Assembly: GCA_030652035.1 (NCBI GenBank)
Contig: JAUSBJ010000035.1
Span: 248,001 to 312,000, forward strand
Source: Sulfurimicrobium sp.
GTDB lineage: Bacteria; Pseudomonadota; Gammaproteobacteria; Burkholderiales; Sulfuricellaceae
DNA length: 64,000 nt
Reading direction: 5' to 3'
Shown: piece by piece, positions 21,294-22,275 of the stretch
Layout of the letters: the number at the start of each line of letters is the position of its first letter
How positions within the stretch are numbered: position 1 is the first letter of the stretch
The notes under the pieces: generated by a model
The model's database searches: none
The model's input: only the letters and a program-made list of their open reading frames with translations
What the model was told of the DNA's origin: nothing
Program-made: the position numbers and the translations under genes

Positions 21294-21308
21294 CTCAATC
21301 AGATTGAG
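21294..21308. promoter_or_regulatory. Inverted repeat CTCAATC-A-GATTGAG, candidate operator
   Basis: Perfect 7-bp arms in the divergent intergenic region between terS and the 21374 gene. Confidence 0.4.
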
Positions 21309-21335
21309 CTTGGCTTTGGGTTTGAACAGCGCATT
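21308..21335 (+). promoter_or_regulatory. Repeated leader motif copy 1: GCTTGGCTT-N7-GAACAGCGCATT
   Basis: Direct reading; same 28-nt architecture as two other copies; 38 nt before ATG at 21374. Confidence 0.7.
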
Positions 21336-21373
21336 CATGTGTTCGTCATCAACGACATCACAAGGACAACACC

Positions 21374-21583
21374 ATGAGCCAGATTGACACCCTCCTGACC
21401 CTGATCGCACAGAAGCACCTCGGGATCGAAACTTTGGAAACCCGCAAGTCGGACCGCCTCGACTTCCATGACACAGCGGTCTGGTGCATCCGCGACGCCC
21501 TGGAGGCTGCCTTCAAGGCTGGCGTCGAACTCGGGGTTTCGATGCCCCAGGCCCGTGAGTCGGAGATCGCCAGCGACGATTGA
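21374..21583 (+). CDS. DUF6900-like small protein
   Basis: 69 aa MSQIDTLLTLIAQKHLGIETLETRKSDRLDFHDTAVWCIRDALEAAFKAG. Confidence 0.75.
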   Translation: MSQIDTLLTLIAQKHLGIETLETRKSDRLDFHDTAVWCIRDALEAAFKAGVELGVSMPQARESEIASDD

Positions 21584-21610
21584 AAGAAGATCGAAGCCGG
21601 GCGCAGAAAT

Positions 21611-21638
21611 GCTTGGCTTCACTCGCGAACAGCGCGTT
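21611..21638 (+). promoter_or_regulatory. Repeated leader motif copy 2: GCTTGGCTT-N7-GAACAGCGCGTT
   Basis: Direct reading; 37 nt before ATG at 21676. Confidence 0.7.
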
Positions 21639-21675
21639 CATCACCACACCATCAATCACCACGCAGGAGTACCAA

Positions 21676-22191
21676 ATGACTACTACCCAACTCACCGTTA
21701 CCCAGCACGCCGTCCTTGCCCAAGCCATTCACCACAGCGATGGCAAACTCGACTCGTTCCCAGACAACATCAAAGGCGGTGCGCGCAAGAAAGTCCTCGA
21801 CGGGCTGTTCAACCGCGCCCTCATCACGACCAACGGCACCGACTGGTTCGTCACCGCCGAGGGCTACGACGCCCTGGGCTGCGCACGCCCCGCGCCTGCG
21901 CCCTTGGATGCAGACCCTGAGATCGAGGCCGCCGTGACGGCTGCAGAGGCCACGTGGGCGCAAGAGCACGCCGACACCAAGCCCCGCACCCGCGAAAACA
22001 GCAAGCAGGCCACCGTGATCCAGATGCTGCAGCGTCCCGAGGGCGCAACGGTGCGCCAACTCTGCGAGACCACCGGCTGGCAAGCGCACACCGTGCGTGG
22101 CACCTTCGCCGGAGCCTTCAAGAAGAAACTGGGGCTCACCATCACCTCGGAAAAACTTGAAGGCGGCGAGCGCATCTACCGGATCGCGTGA
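21676..22191 (+). CDS. DUF3489-like protein
   Basis: Start at MTTTQLTVTQHAVLAQAIHHSDGKL; C-terminal wHTH-like SKQATVIQMLQRPEGATVRQLCETTGWQAHTVRGTFAGAFKKKLGL. Confidence 0.85.
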   Translation: MTTTQLTVTQHAVLAQAIHHSDGKLDSFPDNIKGGARKKVLDGLFNRALITTNGTDWFVTAEGYDALGCARPAPAPLDADPEIEAAVTAAEATWAQEHADTKPRTRENSKQATVIQMLQRPEGATVRQLCETTGWQAHTVRGTFAGAFKKKLGLTITSEKLEGGERIYRIA

Positions 22192-22247
22192 TCGCGGACG
22201 GGGCGGCCAGCGCCATCGGTCGCCCCCGCAAGAATGATTCGATATCC

Positions 22248-22275
22248 GCTTGGCTTCTCAATCGAACAGCGCGTT
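22248..22275 (+). promoter_or_regulatory. Repeated leader motif copy 3: GCTTGGCTT-N7-GAACAGCGCGTT
   Basis: Direct reading; 39 nt before ATG at 22315. Confidence 0.7.

What the first reader, a model, noticed from the sequence alone, without database searches (positions are those of the whole stretch)
21308..22275. Three-copy leader motif GCTTGGCTT-N7-GAACAGCGCRTT at fixed distance before phage cargo genes
At 21308-21335, 21611-21638 and 22248-22275 the sequence shows gcttggctt-tgggttt-gaacagcgcatt, gcttggctt-cactcgc-gaacagcgcgtt and gcttggctt-ctcaatc-gaacagcgcgtt. The two blocks (9 and 12 nt) are conserved, the 7-nt spacer is not but its length is exact, and the ATGs of three unrelated proteins (DUF6900-like, DUF3489-like, unknown) follow 38, 37 and 39 nt later. 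Unrelated coding regions behind an identical leader suggest a dedicated promoter/operator, an RNA regulatory leader or a cassette-insertion unit for phage morons. TTGGCT-N17-rTTCAT is only weakly sigma70-like, so an activator or phage factor may be needed. A fourth gene (22694) lacks the motif and seems to be co-transcribed with the third.
Basis: partly seen in the sequence, partly recalled or inferred. Interest (0 to 1): 0.8.

Follow-up and report, generated by a model that had tools for sequence, protein, structure and literature searches.

The report
Repeated promoter of a phage regulon
Many prophages in diverse bacteria put the same unusual, almost unchanging DNA switch in front of each of several tiny unrelated genes of unknown function, so the switch marks a hidden shared gene-expression programme and a way to find its members.

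Summary
Three exact copies lie at the stated coordinates; the hits found in the window were not matched in any of 100 shuffles. The full element is GCTTGGCTTC-N6-GAACAGCGCGTTCAT (copy 3 ends GTTACT). It precedes more than 15 unrelated families of small proteins, with the start codon about 65-67 nt after its first base. A Shine-Dalgarno and start lie in that range for 304/341 copies, against 4.7% of random positions. Block spacing is exact in 563/565 copies. Of 281 loci chosen by protein similarity alone, 279 carry it.

Best reading: a dedicated phage promoter repeated so that each small gene is its own transcription unit (TTGGCT-N17-GTTCAT, candidate +1 seven bases after the second hexamer). 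It is neither coding, nor a structured RNA leader, nor a good sigma-70 promoter. Between neighbouring cassettes, block 1 is often also the 3' arm of an RNA hairpin, probably ending the previous gene's transcript. DUF3489 (window 21676-22191), predicted to hold two winged-helix domains, is the prime candidate. No transcription start has been measured.

The parts
21308..21338 (+). Promoter-like element, copy 1 (block 1 21308-21316; block 2 21324-21338; GCGCATTCAT variant); candidate +1 at 21345
   Evidence: exact 9+9 match; +1 inferred from the Y36-R37 conservation in the logo
21374..21583 (+). Cassette gene 1, DUF6900 protein, 69 aa
   Evidence: PF21841 E 2e-24
21593..21602 (+). 5' arm GAAGCCGGGC that pairs with block 1 of copy 2 (10 pairs, two of them G-U): candidate 3'-end hairpin of cassette gene 1
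   Evidence: sequence; the hairpin class is tested
21611..21641 (+). Promoter-like element, copy 2; candidate +1 at 21648
   Evidence: exact match
21676..22191 (+). Cassette gene 2, DUF3489 protein, 171 aa, two predicted winged-helix domains; candidate regulator of the element
   Evidence: PF11994 E 1e-32; model; fold matches
22248..22278 (+). Promoter-like element, copy 3 (GCGCGTTACT variant typical of this gene family); candidate +1 at 22285
   Evidence: exact match; protein-chosen loci
22315..22683 (+). Cassette gene 3, phrog_8020 protein, 122 aa, all-helical model without a convincing match in the PDB
   Evidence: 2910 homologues found
22694..22900 (+). Cassette gene 4, 68 aa, no element of its own; probably co-transcribed with gene 3
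   Evidence: same arrangement in AcaML1 gp28-gp27
20737..21267 (-). Terminase small subunit, divergent flank of the array
   Evidence: phrog_57 E 9e-34
22793..24139 (-). ParB_N plus N6/N4 methyltransferase, convergent flank of the array
   Evidence: PF01555 E 3e-27, PF02195 weak

Best explanation
The element is a dedicated phage promoter, repeated so that each small cargo gene or gene pair is its own transcription unit facing against the main phage operon. Block 1 (GCTTGGCTTC) is the -35 region and block 2 (GAACAGCGCGTTCAT) the extended -10 region, giving TTGGCT-N17-GTTCAT. RNA should start seven bases after the last T, giving a roughly 28-nt unstructured C/A-rich leader with a strong Shine-Dalgarno. 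Where cassettes follow one another, block 1 also serves as the 3' arm of an RNA hairpin at the end of the previous gene. Shown: invariance, exact spacing, position, orientation, unrelated downstream families, hairpin with wobble-preserving changes. Inferred: promoter activity and start site; that the hairpin ends transcription; that a phage-encoded protein, most likely the DUF3489 protein, activates or represses the set so that the genes are switched together.
For: Collections: at least 109 viral and 120 genome stretches with exact copies, many with 2-5 per contig. Start codon 64-68 nt after the first base in most copies, in front of more than 15 unrelated families. Shine-Dalgarno plus start at 56-73 nt: 304/341 copies against 425/9120 random positions. 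Loci chosen by protein similarity: 279/281 carry the element, most block positions over 95% invariant while the gapped bases vary. Spacing exact in 563/565. Pyrimidine then purine at positions 36-37, as expected for -1/+1. Leader unstructured, and frames to the start codon evenly spread (268/244/217), so not coding. Hairpin of 8 pairs or more in 79/134 copies with another copy shortly upstream against 32/170 without (p 5e-13), with changes that keep G-U pairing favoured. Same array at the same place in phage AcaML1. Shared deviations: L471 carries G25C in 4 of 5 copies; overall 18 concordant pairs against 6.2 expected. DUF3489 in 37/45 viral records and in 8 of 9 motif-positive genomes of 387; the ninth copy stands before a truncated DUF6900 frame near a transposase-like ORF.
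Against: No transcript data. T at the position equivalent to -11 makes GTTCAT a poor sigma-70 -10 element, and the scan finds no promoter there. Spacing is stricter than is usual for sigma-70 promoters. The hairpin lacks a T-run. DUF3489 as reader is weak: copies at the lysis end of some phages occur in records without DUF3489 (possibly fragments), and most alphaproteobacterial DUF3489 proteins have a very similar recognition helix but no such element. The concordance excess is modest and rests largely on one locus.
Confidence: 0.72

Rival explanations
1. Operator first: the element is mainly the binding site of a phage repressor or activator (DUF3489) that overlaps a weak ordinary sigma-70 promoter, giving a burst of expression on infection and then shut-off, as in acr-aca operons.
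For: Two winged-helix domains could match two blocks held at one spacing; deviations shared within a phage; DUF3489 itself carries the element (window copy 2); co-occurrence.
Against: Some copies lack DUF3489 in the same record. The element is not a clean palindrome. Phage repressor operators usually diverge between phages, whereas this one is near-invariant across many hosts. The DUF3489 helix is conserved in relatives with other leaders.
Confidence: 0.35
2. RNA leader: the element acts after transcription as a structured or protein-bound RNA in the mRNA.
For: It is strand-specific, near the start codon, and block 1 takes part in an RNA hairpin in 125/323 copies.
Against: Leader from +37 has mean z +0.65 (less structured than shuffles); the outer pair of the GAAC/GTTC stem forms in only 65% of copies, with no compensatory change. 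No Rfam match. The hairpin is much rarer where no cassette lies upstream.
Confidence: 0.1
3. Recombination or insertion site that assembles moron cassettes.
For: Copy number and gene content vary between phages; motif and gene behave as a module.
Against: The middle bases differ between families while the ends stay fixed, and the distance to the start codon is fixed; neither is needed for recombination. The flanking terminase and methyltransferase genes and the main cassette genes recur together. No matching repeat was seen at the far end of the last cassette in the window.
Confidence: 0.05
4. Conserved coding sequence: CTT GGC TTN NNN NNN GAA CAG CGC reads LGFxxEQR, an N-terminal extension of the proteins.
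For: The reading is open in some copies; AcaML1 gp30 starts inside the element, and many database versions of cassette protein 3 are 149-152 aa long, as the longer window ORF from 22234 is.
Against: All three frames to the start codon are about equally common; a Shine-Dalgarno precedes the downstream ATG.
Confidence: 0.02

Closest known systems
Start-associated and extended start-associated sequences (SAS/ESAS) of cluster K mycobacteriophages (PMC3203893, PMC12699233)
   Same: Short asymmetric conserved sequence before many unrelated phage genes; inverted repeats whose consensus differs between subclusters; function unproven
   Different: SAS (GGGATAGGAGCCC) lies immediately before the start codon; here the element ends about 30-40 nt before the start. 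Different sequence, hosts and architecture; ESAS spacers vary, here the spacing is fixed
Intergenic repeats of halovirus HF2 (PMC8707807)
   Same: Repeated intergenic sequences conserved across a virus genus; nine were cloned and all drove a reporter
   Different: Archaeal virus, AT-rich motifs; not tied to one class of small cargo genes
Establishment-gene regulatory sequences of pLS20-family plasmids (PMC8708921)
   Same: One conserved regulatory sequence before several operons of variable genes; in clade II a plasmid repressor controls its own and the establishment promoters
   Different: Conjugative Gram-positive plasmids; EGeRS1 is 400-600 bp and highly structured; the EGeRS2 plasmids use a ribbon-helix-helix repressor
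Moron genes of temperate phages
   Same: Small non-core genes with their own expression signals, opposed to the main operon
   Different: Morons are defined with a sigma-70 promoter and a rho-independent terminator (criteria in PMC5567305); here one unusual element is shared by a whole set across many phages
acr-aca operons of anti-CRISPR phages (as described in PMC8708921)
   Same: Small proteins next to a helix-turn-helix gene proposed to control them
   Different: Here each gene has its own copy of the element; no anti-CRISPR or anti-defence function has been shown

Membership tests
Sigma-70 promoter | -35 TTGACA-like and -10 TATAAT-like hexamers, with A at -11 and T at -7 | tested here: not met
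   TTGGCT gives 4/6 and GTTCAT 3/6; position -11 is T in about 99% of copies; the scan finds nothing at the copies on the + strand
Sigma-70 promoter | Spacing of 16-18 bp and a pyrimidine-purine start about 7 bp after the -10 | tested here: met
   17 bp in 563/565 copies; Y36 99%, R37 92%. Start not measured
SAS/ESAS of cluster K mycobacteriophages | Consensus GGGATAGGAGCCC immediately before the start codon | tested here: not met
   The sequence before the starts is a C/A-rich stretch with AAGGAG; the element lies about 30-40 nt upstream
SAS/ESAS of cluster K mycobacteriophages | Repeated before many unrelated phage genes | tested here: met
   More than 15 unrelated families
Structured RNA leader (riboswitch-like) | Conserved base pairs supported by compensatory changes in the leader | tested here: not met
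   mean z +0.65; no compensatory change; no Rfam match
Moron | Own promoter and own terminator, independent of the phage operon | tested here: inconclusive
   Promoter-like element and opposite strand; hairpin at many cassette junctions but no T-run; no transcript data
acr-aca type operon | HTH protein that binds a repeat in the promoter of the small genes | not testable with these tools
   Winged-helix protein present and co-occurring; binding needs an experiment
acr-aca type operon | Neighbouring small genes are defence inhibitors | not testable with these tools
   No Pfam or NCBIfam hits and only weak PADLOC hits (E 0.04-0.06) for the cassette families scanned, apart from the two DUFs
ssDNA promoter of conjugative leading regions | Sits in the leading region of a conjugative element | tested here: not met
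   Sits between terminase and methyltransferase genes of tailed prophages

The most novel reading that the evidence does not exclude
DUF3489 proteins are two-headed phage transcription regulators: one winged helix reads each block of the element, which explains the rigid spacing. The element needs them to work with a non-canonical -10 and switches a dispersed regulon of small counter-defence or establishment genes on at entry and off again. Other DUF3489 lineages (alphaproteobacteria) would do the same with different repeated leaders.
Probability: 0.25. Interest if true: 0.78.

Novelty: new variant of a known kind. Interest (0 to 1): 0.62.

Why it matters
The element is a ready-made search key. 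It collects more than 15 families of tiny phage proteins, most without any family name, into one apparent regulon spread over beta- and gammaproteobacterial prophages and a few further groups, including the isolated phage AcaML1. If it is a promoter with a dedicated reader, it would be a compact and very strictly spaced switch that host RNA polymerase should read poorly on its own. Its gene set would be a natural place to look for new counter-defence or establishment proteins.

Tried and rejected
Coding reading LGFxxEQR: rejected because the three frames are about equally common. GAAC-N5-GTTC as an RNA stem: rejected, no compensatory change. Known RNA family: no match at permissive thresholds in 20500-23500, nor at gathering thresholds in related loci. 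Alternative sigma factors (sigma-54, sigma-32, ECF, FliA): compared by eye with consensus sequences from memory; none fits both blocks and the spacing, but this was not a formal test. Packaging site near the terminase: rejected because copies precede many genes, some about 22 kb away in the same genome. Prophage CI-type operator: unlikely because immunity operators diverge between phages (general knowledge). Literature: one paper in the library mentions DUF3489, without giving a function in the passage read; a string search for the 9-mer gave 446 papers, and the 15 listed were unrelated.

Full report
What was claimed and what is there. Chance is excluded: allowing three mismatches, 0.12 hits are expected in the window and four are found, three of them exact. 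The rest of the 3.27-Mb assembly has no further exact copy. The array lies in a tailed prophage, on the opposite strand to the structural genes, between the terminase small subunit and two DNA-methyltransferase genes with weak ParB_N matches.

Distribution. Titles name mainly Burkholderiales, Rhodocyclaceae and Lysobacterales, with Pseudomonas indica, Halotalea, Nitrospira defluvii, a Geobacter and an alphaproteobacterial MAG among the rest. In the first viral set, the logo of 199 unique copies shows the true element: GCTTGGCTTC-N6-GAACAGCGCGTTCAT, followed by free bases, then pyrimidine-purine at positions 36-37, then a C/A-rich stretch and a Shine-Dalgarno. Because that set was found by exact match on 18 bases, invariance was re-measured on loci found by protein similarity only: 279 of 281 orthologues of the cassette proteins carry the element at 61-72 nt, with most block positions above 95% and the middle bases variable. 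One of the two exceptions has lost block 1 (L367) and one has a 4-bp insertion (L309). Across all loci with both core blocks intact the spacing between them is exact in 563 of 565.

What it precedes. Of 365 exact copies, most have a start codon 64-68 nt after the first base, in front of more than 15 protein families that do not match one another. As a control, 304 of 341 copies have a Shine-Dalgarno plus start in the 56-73 nt range against 425 of 9120 random positions in the same loci. Frames between the element and the start are evenly spread, so it is not coding; gene callers have nevertheless started some proteins inside it (AcaML1 gp30; probably also the 149-152-aa forms). Ten further representatives have no Pfam family.

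Promoter or leader. The arrangement TTGGCT-N17-GTTCAT with pyrimidine-purine seven bases later has the geometry of a bacterial promoter, but the second hexamer carries T where sigma-70 needs A, and a sigma-70 scan finds nothing on the + strand. Variants of the second hexamer in divergent phages include GTTACT, GTGAAT, CTTAAT, CTTCAT and GTCAAT, all ending in T. The leader after the presumed start is less structured than shuffles and the only internal stem does not covary. A promoter is therefore the best reading, by anatomy; no transcript has been measured here.

A junction hairpin. Block 1 can pair with an upstream GAAGCCAAGC-like arm over at least 8 bp in 125 of 323 copies; lengths of 9-10 bp are about fifteen times more common than in shuffles. 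Such hairpins are concentrated where another cassette lies within 1.5 kb upstream (79/134 against 32/170, p 5e-13). When one position is left out and at least seven of the other nine must be Watson-Crick pairs, changes that keep a G-U pair outnumber pair-breaking transitions (69/643 against 11/273), as expected for RNA. Copies inherited together are not independent, so these p-values are optimistic. In the window, copy 2 has such an arm at 21593-21602. The natural reading is that block 1 serves twice, as the -35 region of one gene and as the 3' arm of a hairpin ending the previous transcript. There is no T-run, so termination is inferred.

Who reads it. DUF3489 is present in 37 of 45 motif-bearing viral records. 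Of 387 genomes of the class, 9 carry the element (up to one mismatch) and 8 of these carry DUF3489 over its cut-off; only 3 genomes have DUF3489 over the cut-off without the element. The ninth element stands before a DUF6900 frame truncated to 30 aa, near a transposase-like ORF. The DUF3489 protein is predicted as two winged-helix domains (mean pLDDT 82, pTM 0.41, so the relative placing of the domains is uncertain), with Foldseek probabilities near 1 to ArsR/MarR-type regulators though E-values only near 0.02. Deviations are sometimes shared by the copies of one phage: G25C in 4 of 5 copies of L471, and C22A in the copies of L439 and L487. Shuffling copies among loci gave 6.2 concordant pairs on average against 18 observed, a level reached only by the largest of 2000 shuffles. 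This suggests a phage-encoded reader.

Comparison with the known. The nearest described things are the SAS/ESAS of cluster K mycobacteriophages (PMC3203893, PMC12699233), the promoter-bearing intergenic repeats of halovirus HF2 (PMC8707807), the establishment-gene sequences of pLS20-family plasmids (PMC8708921) and morons in general (criteria used in PMC5567305). It works like these but meets the sequence definition of none. Among isolated phages in the collection, only AcaML1 was found with a relative of the DUF3489 protein; its array is annotated as hypothetical proteins, and the passages on AcaML1 read in two papers do not mention the element. That the element is undescribed rests on the open-access library only.

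Verdict. A real, widespread, functionally constrained element; most likely the promoter of a dispersed phage regulon of tiny genes; reader and purpose open.

Noticed in passing
L504:3039 and 3693; L491, L494, L502, L508, L509, L512: Other DUF3489 loci, apparently alphaproteobacterial, carry a different repeated leader, TGGATA, about a dozen bases, then ATGGCTNNAT, also before small genes and followed by a C/A-rich leader and Shine-Dalgarno: same design, other sequence.
   Followed up: partly
upstream of DUF3489 in L438, L440, L478, L479, L481, L482, L484, L486, L488: A third leader type, a G+C-rich hairpin followed by a GGGGTCGTAGAAG-like sequence, conserved before DUF3489 genes of Shinella, Paracoccus and similar genomes; no Rfam match.
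   Followed up: no
L436 (Bordetella phage CN1), upstream of 3959, 4397, 6088: Near-identical promoter-like sequence with TTTACTT and CACTATACTTCT before several small genes, one annotated as an antirestriction protein: a possible parallel with a sigma-70-like promoter.
   Followed up: no
L519-L525, L030:5372-5662: The 'MSNRF' family with a single copy of the element sits at the prophage edge beside large restriction- or helicase-like genes, next to a conserved convergent gene of about 290-340 aa.
   Followed up: partly
L435:3792-4154 (AcaML1 gp30): The annotated start lies just upstream of the element, so the annotated protein reads through it; many database forms of the phrog_8020 protein are about 27-30 aa longer than the window protein, probably for the same reason.
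   Followed up: partly
window 22315-22683: phrog_8020 protein: 2910 homologues, confident all-helical model, no convincing match in the PDB.
   Followed up: partly
G004:C1:3226683-3228855 and 3295776-3297572: A genome of the same genus carries two arrays about 70 kb apart with 11 copies or near-copies in all.
   Followed up: no
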